Source: Aquificaceae bacterium
GTDB lineage: Bacteria; Aquificota; Aquificia; Aquificales; Aquificaceae
Direction: 5' to 3'
NCBI GenBank assembly: GCA_015487835.1
Contig: WFOY01000053.1
Span: forward strand, 1 to 8,119
DNA length: 8,119 nt
The notes beneath the pieces are model-generated. The model saw only the letters and a program-made list of their open reading frames with translations, did not search any database and had not been told where the DNA came from. Of the stretch, positions 1-5,601 are shown in pieces (position 1 is the stretch's first letter; each line of letters starts with the position of its first letter). The position numbers and the translations under genes are program-made.

Positions 1-214
1 GGTTGACCAGGACACCTGCACCGCCTGTGAGCTCTGCTACGACAGGATACCGGAAGTGTTCAAAAATATAGGGGACGGCATAGCGGACGTGGTGGAGGTT
101 CACATAGAGGACGGGGACGAGAGGTGGATGAACGTTCCCGAGGACCTGGAGGGAGAGGTTCAGGAGGTTGCGGACGAGTGTCCAAGCGGTTCAATAATAG
201 TTGAGGAGGCGTAA
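1..214 (+). CDS. Ferredoxin, single [4Fe-4S] cluster (5' end missing)
   Basis: This is the C-terminal 70 residues of a small soluble electron carrier; the first whole codon is at base 2 and the start lies outside the window. The visible part begins just before the cluster motif CTACELC (C-x2-C-x2-C), and the fourth ligand is in DECPSG near the C-terminus, which gives one [4Fe-4S] cluster. The protein is very acidic. It is a close paralogue of the next gene: about 55 of 70 aligned residues are identical by hand count, with one codon of length difference. In Hydrogenobacter, tandem ferredoxins of this kind feed low-potential electrons to 2-oxoacid:ferredoxin oxidoreductases of the reductive TCA cycle, so that role is inferred here. 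Its last codons (203-209, GAGGAGG) double as the ribosome binding site of the next ferredoxin, so the two are surely cotranscribed. Confidence 0.93.
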   Translation, partial: VDQDTCTACELCYDRIPEVFKNIGDGIADVVEVHIEDGDERWMNVPEDLEGEVQEVADECPSGSIIVEEA

Positions 215-217
215 GCC

Positions 218-457
218 ATGGCGAACAAGAAGGTTCGCATAGAGTACGACACCTGCACCGCCTGCGAGCTCTGTTACGACAGGATACCTGAAGTCTTCAA
301 GAACAGAGGTGACGGTATAGCGGACGTGGTCCGCTATGACATAGATGAGGACGAAGAGGTCAAGTGGATGTTCGTCCCTGAGGACCTGGAGGGGGAAGTG
401 GAAGAGGTGGCCGACGAGTGCCCCAGCGGATCGATAATAGTTGAGGACGCGGACTAA
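218..457 (+). CDS. Ferredoxin, single [4Fe-4S] cluster (complete)
   Basis: This is a complete 79-residue ferredoxin that carries electrons in the cytoplasm. The ligands are C13, C16 and C19 (CTACELC) and C68 (ECPSG), with no second cluster motif, so it holds one [4Fe-4S] cluster. About 20 acidic residues fall after position 40, which suits docking on a basic partner enzyme. The ATG at 218 has a strong Shine-Dalgarno GAGGAGG at 203-209, eight bases upstream, inside the previous ferredoxin gene from which it is separated by only three bases. It is the second member of a recent tandem duplication; the pairs differ mainly in the acidic segment at residues 39-51. Its 3' end overlaps the next gene by 17 bases. 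The likely partners (pyruvate or 2-oxoglutarate:ferredoxin oxidoreductase) come from family knowledge and are not visible here. Confidence 0.95.
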   Translation: MANKKVRIEYDTCTACELCYDRIPEVFKNRGDGIADVVRYDIDEDEEVKWMFVPEDLEGEVEEVADECPSGSIIVEDAD

Positions 458-1210: not shown

Positions 1211-2380
1211 ATGGAGAGGACCCTCTCGGCGGGAGATATACAGTTCGGCTACGCGAAGAGGTACTTCGAGGAGTTCATATCGTCGAGACCGAAGATAAGG
1301 GAAGCCCTGAACAAGGTGGAGACGCCCGCTATCCTCATGGACCTGGAGGGCATAAAGGCGAGGTACGTCCAGATAAGGTACCACCTTCCCGAGGTTAACG
1401 TTTACTACGCGGTGAAGGCCAACGACCACATAGATGTCCTGAGGGCCCTTGCGGAGGTCGGTTCAGGCTTCGAGGTGGCCTCCTCAGGAGAGCTCGAGAA
1501 GGTTTTATCTTTAAAGGTTCCCCCCGAGAGGGTTATATCCAGCAACCCCGTAAAGCCCGAGGAGTTCATAGACTTCGCCTACAGGTCTGGGGTTAACCGC
1601 TTCGCGGTGGACAGCTTCACAGAGGTGGAGAAGATAGCGAGGGTTGCCCCCAGGTCCAGGGTGTACGTGAGGGTCACCGTACCCAACGAGGGGAGCGACT
1701 GGCCCCTTTCGAGGAAGTTCGGTGTCGATCCAGAGACGGCCCTCGACATACTGGAGTTCGCAAAAGAAAAAGGTCTTGTGCCCGTAGGGATAACCTTCCA
1801 CGTGGGTTCCCAGTGTAACAACCTCAGGAACTGGTTCATAGCCGTAAGGGACTCCTCCTACCTCTGGGAGAGGGCAAGATCAAGGGGTCTGAGGCTGATG
1901 GTCCTCAACATGGGCGGTGGGATCCCGGTCAGGTACCTGTACGAGTCCTTAAGGGTGGAGGACGTAGCCTACTACGTAAAGGGCCTTTTGAGGAAATACT
2001 TCTCCGTACCCCCTTACGAGCTCCAGATAGAGCCAGGTAGGGGCATAGTGGGTGATCAGGGAGTGCTCGTCACCAGGGTGATCGGAAAGGCTAAGAGAGG
2101 GGAGGAGAACTGGGTCTACCTGGACACGGGTGTGTTCAACGGGCTGGCGGAGACCCTCGGCGGGATCAGGTACCCCATGTTCCTGGAGAGGGAAGGGGAT
2201 CTCAAGGAGTGGGTGGTCGGGGGTGTTTCCTGCGACAGCCTTGACGTTATAGCGAGGAACATATACCTTCCTGAACCTGAGGTTGGGGACAGGGTTTACA
2301 TACTCTCGGCGGGAGCCTATACGTCCGTCTACGCGAGCGAGTTCAACGGCTTCCCGAAGCCGAAGGTCATATGTCTGTGA
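1211..2380 (+). CDS. PLP-dependent decarboxylase, ornithine decarboxylase type
   Basis: This 389-residue protein belongs to the alanine-racemase-fold (group IV) amino-acid decarboxylases. Visible landmarks are YYAVKAN with the PLP lysine K69, HVGSQ (197-201) with the ring-stacking histidine, the phosphate loop GGG (235-237), EPGR (274-277), and the C-terminal-domain CDSLD (341-345), with Y370 in SAGAYTSVYASEFNGF. CDSLD is the ornithine/arginine type signature; diaminopimelate decarboxylases have CESGD, so polyamine synthesis (ornithine to putrescine) is the best guess, with lysine, arginine or carboxyspermidine-type substrates possible. The position of the substrate-binding Asp of eukaryotic ODC seems to be T307 in YLDTGVFNGL, which keeps the substrate open. 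About 35 residues precede the conserved core. The ATG at 1211 follows the MBL stop by five bases and has no clear Shine-Dalgarno, so translation may depend on coupling. Its 3' end overlaps the convergent PilT-like gene by 14 bases. Confidence 0.85.
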   Translation: MERTLSAGDIQFGYAKRYFEEFISSRPKIREALNKVETPAILMDLEGIKARYVQIRYHLPEVNVYYAVKANDHIDVLRALAEVGSGFEVASSGELEKVLSLKVPPERVISSNPVKPEEFIDFAYRSGVNRFAVDSFTEVEKIARVAPRSRVYVRVTVPNEGSDWPLSRKFGVDPETALDILEFAKEKGLVPVGITFHVGSQCNNLRNWFIAVRDSSYLWERARSRGLRLMVLNMGGGIPVRYLYESLRVEDVAYYVKGLLRKYFSVPPYELQIEPGRGIVGDQGVLVTRVIGKAKRGEENWVYLDTGVFNGLAETLGGIRYPMFLEREGDLKEWVVGGVSCDSLDVIARNIYLPEPEVGDRVYILSAGAYTSVYASEFNGFPKPKVICL

Positions 2381-3215
2381 GCGTGAACTTTATCTTCTCC
2401 TTCTCGTCCAGGGAGAGGTCCACCACCTTCGAGATCAGTCCCGTTATCTCCTGGTACTCCTCCTTCAGGAACACGTATATGCTCCTCTTTAATGCCTCCA
2501 CGCTCGAAGCGGTTACGCTCATTATGGTCAGTATAGGTATGTCGAAGAGGCGTCTCGCAGCCTTGAGGGCGTCCTTCAGCATTATGTCGCTCATGTATAT
2601 GATCTCGGGGTTAAGAAACAGGGCCTCCTCCACACCCTCCTCGAAGGTGTCCACGTCAACGCCCACCTCCCTCTGGATCACTATGGAGTTGCTGTGCCTT
2701 ATCAGATAGGTGATCGGCCTCTCAAGAACGTAGAGAAGACCCGTCTCCCTGTCGCATATCTCCTGGAGGAGGGAATAGGAGAAGAGGTTGTGGATCACGT
2801 AGGAGGCCCCTATTATCGTGACTATACCGTTGGTATTGAGGAGTGTGTCCAGCAGGTTCTCTATCTCCGCCCTGTTGGAGACTATGTTCTCGAGCCTCGG
2901 TATCTCGTAGGGGACCTTGACTATGCTGACCACGTAGCTTCCCCTCTGGGTTAGGTAGGTCACCCTTATCCTCCCAACCTCGGGGAGCCCGAAGGAGAAG
3001 AGGCCTTCCCTCCCGAGCGGGCCGAGGGAGGTGGTGGTGTTTGACCTGAGGGATATGAGCGTGTCCCTTATGTCCTCAGGGGATAGGATTATGTCCATTA
3101 TCCTGTTGATCCTCCTGTCCCTCCTCTCCACGGGCGAGGCCTTGGGAGCTAGGATAACCTCCGTGAACTCCCTCCTCTCTCCGAGGAAGTTAAGTATCTC
3201 AGGAGCCAGGTTCAT
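2367..3215 (-). CDS. PilT/GspE-like protein with degenerate ATPase motifs
   Basis: The protein has 282 residues and resembles type IV pilus retraction ATPases over most of its length. The N-terminal domain shows LSPEDI (44-49) and GRIRVTYLTQRG then IPRLE (81-109), matching the GRFRvN.f.QRG...iP.LE stretch of PilT. The core shows QREVGVD (181-187), an almost perfect PilT Asp/His-box neighbour. However, the Walker A site GPTGSGKST is replaced by GASYVIHNL (136-144), the Asp box EDPIE by ERPIT (165-169), the Walker B GEMRD by SDIML (209-213), and the HTN histidine box is absent. It therefore probably cannot bind or hydrolyse ATP normally. The reading frame is intact and the fold residues are kept, which argues for a working pseudo-enzyme, perhaps a regulator or structural partner of the real PilT/PilB hexamers. 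No other pilus gene is in the window. The frame extends upstream to a TTG at 3254, but the ATG at 3215 has the ribosome site and aligns with PilT N-termini. Confidence 0.8.
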   Translation of the reverse strand: MNLAPEILNFLGERREFTEVILAPKASPVERRDRRINRIMDIILSPEDIRDTLISLRSNTTTSLGPLGREGLFSFGLPEVGRIRVTYLTQRGSYVVSIVKVPYEIPRLENIVSNRAEIENLLDTLLNTNGIVTIIGASYVIHNLFSYSLLQEICDRETGLLYVLERPITYLIRHSNSIVIQREVGVDVDTFEEGVEEALFLNPEIIYMSDIMLKDALKAARRLFDIPILTIMSVTASSVEALKRSIYVFLKEEYQEITGLISKVVDLSLDEKEKIKFTLTDI

Positions 3216-3305
3216 TCCATCCCCCTCAAAGTATTTTATAGCCGATGACTGCAATCATACTTAAGTTTTCAATTTACTATATTCTTAAGAGAGGAGGCAC
3301 ACCCG
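3216..3305. promoter_or_regulatory. AT-rich divergent promoter region (PilT-like / mrp)
   Basis: These 90 bases are the longest non-coding stretch in the window and lie between two divergent starts, so they must hold promoters for both sides. On the minus strand TATAAAA (3240 to 3234) is a good -10-like box, but a start from it would leave almost no leader. On the plus strand TACTATATT (3275-3283) is -10-like, and GAGGAGG (3291-3297) is a strong ribosome site eight bases before the mrp ATG. I see no convincing -35 box for either, so the exact promoters remain uncertain. A TTAAG repeat occurs at 3261-3265 and, as CTTAAG, at 3284-3289. Confidence 0.45.
3221..3227 (-). promoter_or_regulatory. 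Ribosome binding site fixing the start of the PilT-like gene
   Basis: On the minus strand GAGGGGG lies five bases before the ATG at 3215. It supports that start over the in-frame TTG at 3254, which has no comparable signal and would add 13 residues absent from the family. Confidence 0.75.
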
Positions 3306-4358
3306 ATGGCAGTAAAGGATATCATGGACGCCCTGAGAGGTAAAGATCTGAGCGATCTGGGTCTTAAGGAAAACCTGGCACAGCTGGTGAAGGACATAAA
3401 GCTGATAGGTGAAGACCTGGATGTGGTCCTCTACCTTCCCAAGCCGGGGATCGAGAGCCTCCTGAGGGATAAGGTGCACCAGGCCCTCTCCGGCGTTCCG
3501 GAGGTGAAGAACATAAGGGTGAGGTTCGCTGACTCACCGCCTCCCCAACCCAAGCAGGAGATACCGGTAGGTCAGCCCGCCTTCACGAGGCGTCCGGTTC
3601 CGGGCATCAGGCACATGATAGCTGTGGGGAGCGGAAAGGGTGGTGTGGGAAAGTCAACGGTGGCCGTGAACTTGGCCTTAGCCCTCAGGAATATAGGTTA
3701 CAAGGTTGGCCTCTTGGATGCGGACATATACGGCCCCAGCGTCCCAACCCTATTGGGTATAAAGGGTGAGAGGATAACGGTAAGCGAGAGGAACAAGCTC
3801 GTTCCCATTGAGAGGTTCGGCATAAAGGTCCTCTCCATAGGTCTCATGCTCCCCTCCGAGGATACGCCCGTCATATGGCGTGGCCCTATGCTCATGAAGG
3901 CCCTCACCCAGTTCCTCTTCGACACCGAGTGGGGAGAACTCGACTACCTGATCTTAGACCTCCCTCCTGGGACGGGAGACGTCCAGCTCACCTTGGCACA
4001 GAACGTGGAGATGTCGGGTGCTATCGTTGTGACCACACCCCAGGACGTTGCCCTCGCAGATGTGAGGAAGGCCACCTCCATGTTCAAGGAGGTGAACGTT
4101 CCAGTCTTAGGTGTCATAGAGAACATGGCCTACTTCACCTGTCCGGATACGGGGAAGAGGTACCACATATTCGGCAAGGGTAAGGTGGCCGAGTTCGCAG
4201 CCTCTTACAACCTGAAGATCCTCGGTTCCATACCCATCGATCCGGAGGTCGCGGAGAGGTCCGACAGGGGAGAGCCTGTGGTCATAACCCACCCGGACTC
4301 GGAGGTGGCGAGGGCGTTCGTTGGTATAGCTAAGATAATAGCCCAGAATTTAGGTTAA
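3306..4358 (+). CDS. mrp: Mrp/ApbC (NBP35 family) Fe-S cluster carrier ATPase
   Basis: This 350-residue cytoplasmic P-loop protein carries and delivers Fe-S clusters to apo-proteins. Residues 1-75 form a MIP18/DUF59-type domain, followed by a proline-rich linker (77-100) and the ATPase domain. That domain has the deviant Walker A GSGKGGVGKST (108-118, with signature lysine K111 and P-loop lysine K116), the Mrp signature DADIYGPS (138-145), and switch II DLPPGTGDVQLT (218-229). The usual cluster-binding CxxC after ENMAYF is here C279-P-D-T282, so one cysteine is lost; some Mrp homologues lack one or both, so function is not excluded. Length is normal for the family. The ATG at 3306 has GAGGAGG eight bases upstream. 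The gene is followed after 13 bases by an IscS homologue, so the two probably form an Fe-S assembly operon. Confidence 0.95.
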   Translation: MAVKDIMDALRGKDLSDLGLKENLAQLVKDIKLIGEDLDVVLYLPKPGIESLLRDKVHQALSGVPEVKNIRVRFADSPPPQPKQEIPVGQPAFTRRPVPGIRHMIAVGSGKGGVGKSTVAVNLALALRNIGYKVGLLDADIYGPSVPTLLGIKGERITVSERNKLVPIERFGIKVLSIGLMLPSEDTPVIWRGPMLMKALTQFLFDTEWGELDYLILDLPPGTGDVQLTLAQNVEMSGAIVVTTPQDVALADVRKATSMFKEVNVPVLGVIENMAYFTCPDTGKRYHIFGKGKVAEFAASYNLKILGSIPIDPEVAERSDRGEPVVITHPDSEVARAFVGIAKIIAQNLG

Positions 4359-4371
4359 AGGAGGTAAGAGG

Positions 4372-5601
4372 ATGTTTATCAGGAAAGCTGGTCAGAAGGT
4401 TGTTTACTTAGATCACATAGCGACCACACCGGTCGCCGACGAGGTCCTTGAGGCTATGCTCCCCTATTTTAAGGAGCACTTCGGGAACCCCACCTCCCTC
4501 CACAGCTTCGGTCAGGTGACCAAGAAGGCCATAAACGAAGCTAGGGAGAAGATAGCCACGCTGATAAACGCCAACACTCCCGAGGAGATCATATTCACCT
4601 CCGGTGGCATCGAGGCTAACAACCTGGCCATAAAGGGTATAGCGAGCGCCTACAAGAGAAGGGGAAAGCACATAGTGACCACCGAGATAGAGCACCACTC
4701 CATACTCCACCCCTGCAAAACCTTAGAGAGAGAAGGATGGGAGGTCACCTACCTCAAGCCGGACAGGTACGGTCTTATAGATCCGGACCAGGTCAGGGAA
4801 GCCGTGAGGGAGGACACGGTTCTTGTATCAATCGGCCACTCGAACAGGGAGATAGGGACCATCCAGAACATAAAGGATCTCGTCCAGGCTGCAAAGGAAA
4901 AGAACCCCAAGGTGATCTTCCACACGGACGCCGCCCCTACCCTGGGACACTACCCCGTGGACCTCAAAGAGTGGGGTGTGGACGCGGCCTCCTTTACGGC
5001 ACACCTTATGTACGGGCCCAAAGGTGTGGGCGCCCTCTGGACCAGGAAGGGGGTGAAGGTAAGGCCCCTGATAGAGGGTGGCACCCAGGAGAGGGGTGTT
5101 AGGGCTGGCACCGAGAACGTCCCAGGTATAGTCGGCTTCGGAGCTGCCGCCGAACTCGCCATGAAGGAGCTCGAGGACAGGATGAAAAGGCTCTCCTCTT
5201 ACAGGGACAAGCTCAAGAAGGCTATAGAGGAGAAGCTTCAGTACATAGAGTTCACAGGTCACCCGACCCAGAGGCTACCCCACCACCTCTCGCTCATAGT
5301 CCACTTCATAGAGGGTGAGGCCATGCTCCTCAGGTGTGACCTGATGGGCATAGAGACCGCCTCGGGTTCAGCCTGCGTCTCTCTTGCACTGAAGCAGTCC
5401 CACGTACTCTTCGCCATAGGTGTTCCCAAAGAGGTGTCCAACGGGTCCCTGGTCTTCAGCTTCGGAAGGGAGAACACGGAGGAGGACGTCGATTACGTGG
5501 CCGAGGAGTTCCCCAAGATAGTGAACTGGCTAAGAAGCGTCTCCCCCTTCAATCCTGAGAACTGGGAGAAGTACGTCAAGTCCAGGGAGGGAGCCCACTG
5601 A
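4372..5601 (+). CDS. IscS/NifS-like protein lacking the PLP lysine
   Basis: The protein has 409 residues and is a full-length homologue of class I cysteine desulfurases: YLDHIATTPV (12-21), TSGGIEANNLA (76-86), H108 in EIEHHS, HTDAAPTLGH (184-193), the RAGTEN loop (244-249) and SGSACVS with the mobile-loop cysteine C335. The site that reads SGHK-x-YGPKG in active enzymes reads TAHLMYGPKG (209-218), so the Schiff-base lysine (E. coli K206) is L212. By the same alignment T76 is I80, N155 is R159 and Q183 is P189, while the ring-stacking H108 and D186 remain. Normal PLP-dependent desulfuration is therefore unlikely. It may provide a cysteine ligand or an IscU docking surface in cluster assembly, as suggested for A. 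fulgidus IscS. AAGGAGGT (4358-4365), overlapping the mrp stop codon, lies six bases before the ATG. Confidence 0.9.
   Translation: MFIRKAGQKVVYLDHIATTPVADEVLEAMLPYFKEHFGNPTSLHSFGQVTKKAINEAREKIATLINANTPEEIIFTSGGIEANNLAIKGIASAYKRRGKHIVTTEIEHHSILHPCKTLEREGWEVTYLKPDRYGLIDPDQVREAVREDTVLVSIGHSNREIGTIQNIKDLVQAAKEKNPKVIFHTDAAPTLGHYPVDLKEWGVDAASFTAHLMYGPKGVGALWTRKGVKVRPLIEGGTQERGVRAGTENVPGIVGFGAAAELAMKELEDRMKRLSSYRDKLKKAIEEKLQYIEFTGHPTQRLPHHLSLIVHFIEGEAMLLRCDLMGIETASGSACVSLALKQSHVLFAIGVPKEVSNGSLVFSFGRENTEEDVDYVAEEFPKIVNWLRSVSPFNPENWEKYVKSREGAH

What the first reader, a model, noticed from the sequence alone, without database searches (positions are those of the whole stretch)
5002..5019. IscS homologue without the PLP Schiff-base lysine (K to L212)
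Active cysteine desulfurases read SGHK-x-YGPKG; this protein reads TAHLMYGPKG. The codon is CTT (5005-5007), so at least two and probably three base changes separate it from AAA/AAG, which makes a sequencing error unlikely. Without this lysine, PLP cannot be held as an internal aldimine and the ordinary sulfur transfer chemistry should fail. I recall that Archaeoglobus fulgidus IscS also lacks this lysine, was reported to have no desulfurase activity, and was proposed to supply a cysteine ligand for an IscU-bound cluster. If this host is a bacterium, it would extend such a PLP-free IscS role to bacteria.
Basis: partly seen in the sequence, partly recalled or inferred. Interest (0 to 1): 0.8.

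Follow-up and report, generated by a model that had tools for sequence, protein, structure and literature searches.

The report
Cofactor-less IscS partner of IscU
A bacterium of the Aquifex family carries an IscS protein that has lost the lysine which normally holds its vitamin-B6 cofactor, as have its relatives in three bacterial phyla, and it likely helps build iron-sulfur clusters as a cofactor-free partner of IscU, which matters because in most near-complete genomes of this family no intact cysteine desulfurase was found.

Summary
In detail: residue 212 of this IscS-type protein is leucine (CTT, 5005-5007), where E. coli IscS has the PLP lysine, Lys206. It is not an isolated change. Of 362 rows (this protein and listed homologues from Aquificaceae with Leu or one Phe, Hydrogenothermaceae with Tyr, Nitrospirota and Chloroflexota with Gln), none has the lysine, the substrate arginine or Gln183; the loop cysteine is kept in 361, with one gap. 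With nine active-site columns left out, sampled members form one clade (support 96/93). The IscU-binding face is kept; mrp/apbC lies directly upstream in 29 of 30 Aquificaceae loci; in eight of eight Hydrogenothermaceae and Nitrospirota loci iscU follows. PDB entry 9wfy holds the wild-type Aquifex orthologue together with IscU. In 36 of 43 near-complete Aquificaceae genomes it is the only strong class-V aminotransferase hit, and none of 18 genomes tested has a SUF scaffold. Best reading: a PLP-free IscU partner like A. fulgidus IscS, likely lending Cys335 to the nascent cluster while sulfur likely arrives as sulfide. The kind is known from an archaeon and the orthologue's structure is deposited, so this is a new member of a known kind; its spread, and its being the only candidate in many genomes, is the interesting part. 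Chemistry is untested here.

The parts
4372..5601 (+). iscS-type gene (here called IscS*), 409 aa, class-V aminotransferase fold without the PLP lysine
5002..5019 (+). HLMYGP motif; L212 (CTT, 5005-5007) stands where the Schiff-base lysine (E. coli Lys206) belongs
   Evidence: sequence; codon table; alignment with E. coli IscS
4609..4611 (+). I80 in place of Thr76 (E. coli numbering)
   Evidence: Ile in 121/121 Aquificota rows
4846..4848 (+). R159 in place of Asn155
   Evidence: Arg in 121/121 Aquificota rows
4936..4938 (+). P189 in place of Gln183
   Evidence: no Gln in 362 rows
5452..5454 (+). V361 in place of Arg354 (substrate-carboxylate arginine; role recalled)
   Evidence: no Arg in the 360 rows that have a residue
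5374..5376 (+). C335, the mobile-loop cysteine (E. coli Cys328; A. fulgidus Cys321, the cluster ligand)
   Evidence: Cys in 361 of 362 rows, one gap; A. fulgidus role from PMC9769115 passage
5311..5319 (+). E314-G315-E316, start of the IscU-binding helix (E. coli 309-311)
   Evidence: E 361/362, G 362/362, E 361/362; contact region from PMC2854127 passage
5542..5598 (+). C-terminal segment from S391-P392 through W398, the IscU-binding C-terminus
   Evidence: E. coli IscS lacking residues 376-404 does not bind IscU (PMC2854127 passage)
4359..4365 (+). Shine-Dalgarno-like AGGAGGT; iscS* starts 13 bases after the mrp stop
   Evidence: sequence
3306..4358 (+). mrp/apbC-type P-loop NTPase (Fe-S carrier family), directly upstream
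   Evidence: best NCBIfam models ApbC and MrpORP, both below their cut-offs; upstream in 29 of 30 Aquificaceae loci with upstream DNA

Best explanation
This is an IscS-type protein that has lost the PLP lysine and most of the PLP and substrate site but kept the loop cysteine and the IscU-docking face, and it likely works as a cofactor-free partner of the scaffold IscU, predicted to lend Cys335 to a growing [2Fe-2S] cluster while the sulfur would come as sulfide instead of from cysteine. Shown by sequence: loss of the lysine and of the Gln183, Asn155 and Arg354 equivalents; a loop Cys kept in 361 of 362 rows; a kept IscU face; linkage to mrp/apbC here and to iscU in the Hydrogenothermaceae, Nitrospirota and Chloroflexota loci examined. 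Shown for the Aquifex orthologue: wild-type IscS* and IscU are in one PDB entry. Inferred: no PLP and no desulfurase activity in the cell, Cys335 as cluster ligand (as in A. fulgidus), sulfide as sulfur source, ApbC and Nfu as onward carriers.
For: Site counts: Lys 0 of 362, loop Cys 361 of 362, Gln183 0 of 362, Arg354 0 of 360. One clade without the trait columns, 31 rows, 96/93. Strong purifying selection. IscU face kept. Operons: mrp-iscS*-iscU-PP-loop-tusA-nfu in Hydrogenothermaceae, 4 of 4 loci; tusA-iscS*-iscU in Nitrospirota, 4 of 4; iscS*-iscU in the one Chloroflexota locus. PDB 9wfy chains: wild-type Aquifex IscS* (identical over 406 residues) plus IscU. Co-occurrence with IscU: 19 of 20 Aquificaceae and Hydrogenothermaceae genomes, 0 of 6 outside them. 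No SUFBD core in 18 of 18, found in 4 of 4 outside and 14 of 14 controls. No second strong Aminotran_5 hit in 36 of 43 near-complete Aquificaceae genomes. Sulfide can feed IscU in E. coli lacking IscS (PMC13015791 abstract) and feeds SMS (PMC12192291 passages). A. fulgidus precedent.
Against: No measurement of PLP content, activity, cluster or sulfur source exists in these calls. E. coli K206A keeps some PLP. The equivalents of His104 and Asp180 stay invariant in 362 rows, and that of His205 in the Aquificota and Nitrospirota rows, which a purely structural partner would not obviously need. A tusA gene lies within 2 kb of iscU in 17 of 17 genomes, which fits a persulfide route as well. This genome and 7 of the other 18 examined carry a lysine-type desulfurase gene (one split between two frames). 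G033, 99% complete, has IscU but no IscS* hit; G010 has IscS* but no IscU hit; G015, 92% complete, has a lysine-type gene and no IscS* hit; L031 lacks mrp upstream. I could not read the coordinates of 9wfy.
Confidence: 0.6

Rival explanations
1. Persulfide relay: TusA (recalled to be loaded by rhodaneses in sulfur oxidisers) passes sulfane sulfur to Cys335, and IscS* hands it to IscU; IscS* is a sulfur shuttle without its own sulfur-producing chemistry.
For: tusA within 2 kb of iscU in 17 of 17 Aquificales genomes and directly upstream of iscS* in 4 of 4 Nitrospirota loci; loop Cys kept; E. coli IscS hands sulfur to TusA through this cysteine (PMC2854127 passage); the acidic pair Glu49/Asp52 of the E. 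coli TusA face stays acidic in most Nitrospirota rows, and Arg55 is kept in nearly all rows.
Against: The main TusA contact Trp45 is lost in all 362 rows, and in Aquificota Glu49 is mostly Lys and Asp52 mostly Asn. TusA there may serve the neighbouring PP-loop thiolation enzyme. In A. fulgidus the cysteine is a cluster ligand.
Confidence: 0.22
2. The pocket has been re-used: the kept His108, Asp186, His211 and the new Arg159 bind another ligand, such as iron or an oxyanion, and IscS* delivers or gates that ligand for IscU.
For: His104 and Asp180 equivalents invariant in 362 of 362 rows, His205 equivalent in all Aquificota and Nitrospirota rows, and Arg159 invariant in 121 of 121 Aquificota rows after loss of PLP contacts.
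Against: These residues may only be structural; the residue at 159 differs between lineages (Arg; Pro; mostly Gly, Asn or Ser), and Chloroflexota have Asn or Ser for His211.
Confidence: 0.09
3. It is a helper or regulatory subunit of a lysine-type desulfurase, forming mixed dimers or guiding it to IscU.
For: Lysine-type NifS-like genes exist in this genome, A. aeolicus, most Hydrogenothermaceae (21 of 26 near-complete genomes have a second hit; 18 of those 21 seen to have the lysine) and the five Nitrospirota and Chloroflexota genomes only in part inspected.
Against: 36 of 43 near-complete Aquificaceae genomes have no such hit and yet keep IscS*.
Confidence: 0.05
4. It is still a PLP enzyme, holding PLP without a Schiff base or through another lysine.
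For: E. coli K206A still holds some PLP (PMC9978102 passage); His104 and Asp180 equivalents are kept.
Against: Gln183 and Arg354 equivalents are gone in every row with a residue, and Asn155 in all but 17 of 362; K206A, Q183E and H104Q E. coli IscS are inactive, although R354K is active. Depositors changed two to nine positions of the Aquifex protein stepwise towards the canonical residues, beginning with R159N plus L212K, which suggests that the wild type lacks the activity.
Confidence: 0.04

Closest known systems
Aquifex aeolicus IscS-type protein, PDB 9wfy (wild type, with IscU) and engineered 9wfe, 9wfb, 9wf8, 9wew, 9wer, 9wep
   Same: 89% identical orthologue with the same Leu212, Arg159, Pro189, Val361 and loop Cys; IscU is in the same entry.
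   Different: Named only 'cysteine desulfurase' in the PDB table; no paper found; no statement on function seen. Species name is recalled from the chromosome length of G001.
Archaeoglobus fulgidus IscS (4eb5, 4eb7, 4hvk, 4r5f)
   Same: PLP lysine replaced, loop Cys kept, complex with IscU, no desulfurase activity reported; nearest solved relative after the Aquifex set, 361 bits against 317 for E. coli IscS.
   Different: Archaeal; Asp instead of Leu/Tyr/Gln; about 43% identical. A. fulgidus is listed among SmsCB owners (figure legend in PMC12192291), whereas no SufB-type gene was found in the 18 Aquificales genomes tested.
Methanosarcina acetivorans IscS1
   Same: Lacks the catalytic lysine; proposed to act like A. 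fulgidus IscS (PMC7585200 passage).
   Different: Function untested there; the organism has active IscS2.
E. coli IscS (ISC system)
   Different: This protein lacks the Lys206, Gln183, Asn155, Thr76 and Arg354 equivalents.
SMS (SmsCB) and sulfide-fed Fe-S assembly
   Same: Cluster assembly without a cysteine desulfurase, sulfide as sulfur source (PMC12192291 passages).
   Different: SMS is SufBC-like; here the scaffold would be IscU.

Membership tests
Active IscS/NifS cysteine desulfurase | Schiff-base lysine (E. coli Lys206) | tested here: not met
   Leu212; Lys in 0 of 362 rows
Active IscS/NifS cysteine desulfurase | Gln183, Asn155 and substrate Arg354 equivalents | tested here: not met
   Pro189, Arg159, Val361
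Active IscS/NifS cysteine desulfurase | Loop cysteine (Cys328), His104 and Asp180 | tested here: met
   Cys335, His108, Asp186
Active IscS/NifS cysteine desulfurase | Class-V, IscS-like fold | tested here: met
Active IscS/NifS cysteine desulfurase | NCBIfam equivalog cut-offs | tested here: not met
   TIGR03402 488.1 of 530.75 and TIGR02006 390.4 of 643.2 bits; only the subfamily model NF002806 is passed, 333.7 of 304. The lysine-bearing A. aeolicus NifS-like protein also misses the equivalog cut-offs, so this row weighs little.
Active IscS/NifS cysteine desulfurase | Desulfurase activity | not testable with these tools
   needs protein
A. fulgidus-type PLP-free IscS | Lysine replaced, loop cysteine kept | tested here: met
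   A. fulgidus state
A. fulgidus-type PLP-free IscS | Binds IscU | tested here: inconclusive
   IscU face kept; PDB 9wfy holds the orthologue and IscU; not shown for this protein, coordinates not read
A. fulgidus-type PLP-free IscS | IscS cysteine is a cluster ligand; no desulfurase activity | not testable with these tools
   needs structure and assays
A. fulgidus-type PLP-free IscS | Same clade as A. fulgidus IscS | tested here: inconclusive
   pairwise bits favour it; A. fulgidus was not in the tree
MIS (minimal ISC system) | IscS-like plus IscU-like, no carrier | tested here: inconclusive
   definition from PMC12192291 passage; here ApbC and Nfu genes are linked
SUF or SMS system | SufB/SmsB scaffold in the genome | tested here: not met
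   SUFBD core in 0 of 18 Aquificaceae and Hydrogenothermaceae genomes, the window's own (81.4% complete) among them

The most novel reading that the evidence does not exclude
Most Aquificaceae build all their iron-sulfur clusters with no cysteine desulfurase and no SUF system at all: IscU plus a PLP-free IscS, running on sulfide, in a bacterial clade that lost the PLP lysine once and then spread or diverged across Aquificota, Nitrospirota and Chloroflexota. That would make an ISC system that works without cysteine-derived sulfur an ordinary bacterial way of life and not an archaeal oddity.
Probability: 0.45. Interest if true: 0.78.

Novelty: new member of a known kind. Interest (0 to 1): 0.6.

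Why it matters
Cysteine desulfurase is usually taken as the first step of Fe-S cluster assembly in bacteria. Here a conserved clade has dismantled that step and kept the part that docks IscU, and in many genomes no intact replacement of that protein family was found. If confirmed, it separates the two jobs of IscS (making sulfur, shaping the cluster on IscU) in organisms that can be grown, such as H. thermophilus (recalled), and makes the question whether IscS is a cluster ligand directly testable. It also warns that database entries of this clade, those with a name mostly called cysteine desulfurase, probably lack that activity.

Tried and rejected
Sequencing error or pseudogene: rejected. 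A single odd genome: rejected. TusA relay as the main reading: kept as a rival, since the TusA face is only partly kept. Attempts to place A. fulgidus IscS in the tree failed: its sequence could not be reached, because the seven Aquifex entries always ranked above it. The tree was built with nine active-site columns left out to avoid grouping by the trait; long branches (L066, L059, L055, and the second degenerate paralogues L112, L138, L145, which are also lysine-less and fall outside the clade) are unsure. Literature: searches listed no paper that I recognised as treating the Aquificota protein or the PDB codes; subscription journals and preprints are not held. The fold library with entries up to 8 April 2026 does not show the 9wfy set among its rows, so those entries are probably later. 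In one search I labelled position 109 as the PLP-stacking histidine; one search shows that the His104 equivalent is 108. Homologue counts rest on the best 120 hits of three searches (one listed plus the window protein and P0122, 362 rows, of which P0122/P0123 and the query locus are near-copies); they are not a random sample, a few rows are partial (P0086, P0098, P0099), and only some rows bear an organism name, so the group names are read from those. The family names f1 = Aquificaceae and f2 = Hydrogenothermaceae are likewise read from named kin, not given by the tool.

Full report
What is there. The window is one whole contig (G000:C53) of an 81.4% complete genome; the nearest named records are Aquificaceae. 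The ORF 4372-5601 encodes a 409-residue IscS/NifS-type protein. It starts 13 bases after the stop of an mrp/apbC gene, with an AGGAGGT just before it. Residue 212, the position of the PLP lysine, is leucine (CTT, 5005-5007). Against E. coli IscS Thr76 is Ile80, Asn155 is Arg159, Gln183 is Pro189, Lys206 is Leu212 and Arg354 is Val361; Cys328 (C335), His104 (H108), Asp180 (D186) and His205 (H211) are kept. The roles of single PLP contacts are partly recalled; in E. coli H104Q, D180G, Q183E, K206A and C328S abolish activity while R354K does not (PMC9978102 passages).

It is a conserved family. In 34 Aquificota-type loci that cover the site, 33 have Leu and one Phe (one record is titled Acidobacteria). 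In 362 rows (the best 120 hits of three protein searches, plus two queries) the residue is Leu 98 and Phe 1 in Aquificaceae, Tyr 22 of 22 in Hydrogenothermaceae, Gln 121 of 121 in Nitrospirota and Gln 120 of 120 in Chloroflexota; never Lys. The Arg354 position is Val, Ile or Leu in all 360 rows with a residue; Gln183 is absent from all 362; the loop Cys is present in 361 with one gap. Chloroflexota keep Thr76, and 17 of their rows keep Asn155, so they are less eroded. Silent change at codon 212 and dN far below dS show selection for the protein.

One origin. A tree of 60 rows, made without nine active-site columns, puts the 31 lysine-less rows of these four groups in one clade (96/93); the lysine-bearing Actinomycetota row L045 is the next branch (86/90), and the seven lysine-type desulfurases of the same Aquificota families lie elsewhere. 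Three further lysine-less rows, second paralogues of Aquificaceae, fall outside on a long branch. A. fulgidus could not be included; by pairwise score it is the nearest other solved structure for the window protein, for the Nitrospirota protein and for the Chloroflexota protein.

Partners. mrp/apbC lies directly upstream in 29 of 30 Aquificaceae loci with upstream DNA; L031 is the exception, and four loci start inside or at the gene. In Hydrogenothermaceae the order is mrp - iscS* - iscU - PP-loop protein (ThiI/NFACT-R_2) - tusA - nfu - an aroE-like gene (my reading) in four of four loci; in L152 a gene on the other strand lies between iscS* and iscU, and a BFD-like ferredoxin gene after iscU. 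In Aquificaceae the second half is a separate locus: iscU - PP-loop - tusA - nfu in five of five (L155-L159), while L004 ends after tusA. In four of four Nitrospirota loci the order is tusA - iscS* - iscU, and in the Chloroflexota locus L042 iscU follows iscS*. The IscU proteins keep their cluster cysteines and the aspartate in 19 of 19 loci. The E309-G310-E311 helix start that E. coli IscS uses for IscU is kept in 361-362 of 362 rows, and the C-terminal Ser-Pro in nearly all; the Trp is kept outside Chloroflexota. Of the TusA face, Trp45 is lost everywhere, while Arg55 is kept in nearly all rows and the acidic pair is lost mainly in Aquificota.

What else could make sulfur or clusters. An Aminotran_5 search of 19 genomes found lysine-type desulfurases in eight (one of them split between two frames in G082) and none in eleven, among them H. 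thermophilus TK-6 (G028) and the genomes that I recall as Hydrogenobaculum and Thermocrinis; the middle-scoring hits of these eleven were read one by one and are serine-glyoxylate-type aminotransferases by their GGSQK motif (my naming) or second degenerate IscS paralogues, while hits under 50 bits were not read. Over the order, 43 Aquificaceae genomes are at least 90% complete: in 36 IscS* is the only match at E 1e-45 or better; in six another match is present (all six have the lysine; in G015 it stands instead of IscS*, in G020 it is a fragment); G033 has none (places checked). Of 26 such Hydrogenothermaceae genomes 21 have a second match, 18 of which were seen to have the lysine and three (G088, G092, G102) were not read, and 5 have none. 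SUFBD core: 0 of 18 in these two families, 4 of 4 outside, 14 of 14 controls. IscU: 19 of 20 in the two families, 0 of 6 outside. IscS* itself is in 96 of 136 phylum genomes, all in these two families: 99 matched, and three of those (G015, G072, G095) only by a match of about 35% identity, the other type. TusA lies within 2 kb of iscU in 17 of 17. In Nitrospirota and Chloroflexota, by contrast, lysine-type genes were seen beside IscS* in the same genomes (L162, L163, L165, L166, L168).

Mechanism. Loss of the lysine, the substrate arginine and further PLP contacts makes PLP-driven cysteine desulfuration very unlikely. What selection keeps is the fold, the IscU face and the loop cysteine. In A. 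fulgidus the same set gives an IscS-IscU complex whose IscS Cys321 ligates a [2Fe-2S] cluster (seen with IscU D35A), without desulfurase activity (PMC7585200 and PMC9769115 passages). Sulfide can replace IscS in E. coli provided IscU is there (PMC13015791 abstract), and M. [quoted passage not shown] So I commit to a PLP-free IscU partner with Cys335 as likely ligand and sulfide as likely source (0.6), with a TusA-fed persulfide relay as the main rival (0.22).

Novelty. The kind is published for an archaeon, suggested for M. acetivorans IscS1, and the Aquifex orthologue's structure is public, so this protein is a new member of a known kind. Not found in the papers searched: that one bacterial clade across three phyla shares the loss, and that most near-complete Aquificaceae genomes show no lysine-type desulfurase and those tested no SUF.

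Noticed in passing
L154:10242-11432 (-), H. thermophilus; also L138:130-1260 (-) and L145:324-1412 (-): A second, more degenerate IscS/NifS-like paralogue (lysine replaced by Ser or Phe, DGP[SF]L.[GA]PQG, a loop Cys kept) sits beside a nifV-like gene in a stretch with nifB and nifH: possibly a NifS that also lost its chemistry.
   Followed up: partly
L202 (G030:C112:1900-3600): A third kind of lysine-less paralogue (Tyr at the lysine, Arg159, Ile for Arg354, loop Cys kept) that, unlike IscS*, has lost the EGE start of the IscU helix (reads KSE).
   Followed up: partly
window 4693-4695, 4927-4929, 5002-5004: His108, Asp186 and His211, PLP contacts in active IscS, stay conserved although the rest of the PLP site is gone; no explanation yet.
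   Followed up: no
window 2367-3254 (-): PilT-family protein (NCBIfam pilT_fam, E 1.4e-22, below cut-off) whose Walker A place seems to read TIIGASYVIHNLF, i.e. looks like another dead enzyme; a similar-looking ORF is divergent to mrp-iscS* in H. thermophilus too (L151:11458-12294).
   Followed up: no
L155-L159, L150, L152, L153, L160: Conserved order iscU - PP-loop protein (ThiI-like with NFACT-R_2 domain and several Cys pairs) - tusA - nfu in nine of nine loci, with an aroE-like gene behind in eight: looks like a joint Fe-S and tRNA-thiolation unit.
   Followed up: partly
G105-G111 (third family of the order): No Aminotran_5 match at E 1e-45 in 7 of 7 genomes; the two tested lack IscU and the one tested has a SufB-like protein: candidates for a bacterial SMS without any desulfurase.
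   Followed up: no
L002:1-1020 (-), own genome C37: The own lysine-type NifS-like gene is cut by the contig end and lies near an fdhE-like gene (my reading of the ORF), suggesting a role in formate dehydrogenase maturation.
   Followed up: no
L148 and L110 (G082:C1:1692837-1693909): Lysine-type desulfurase gene split into two frames in a complete Hydrogenothermaceae genome.
   Followed up: no
L155:8472-9604 and L147:358-1484 (genome taken as A. aeolicus): Both the PP-loop gene and a class-V aminotransferase gene appear as two overlapping frames, perhaps frameshifts in the reference.
   Followed up: no
window 2-457: Two tandem, very similar small ferredoxin-like ORFs with a CTACELC motif (no NCBIfam match for the second).
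   Followed up: no
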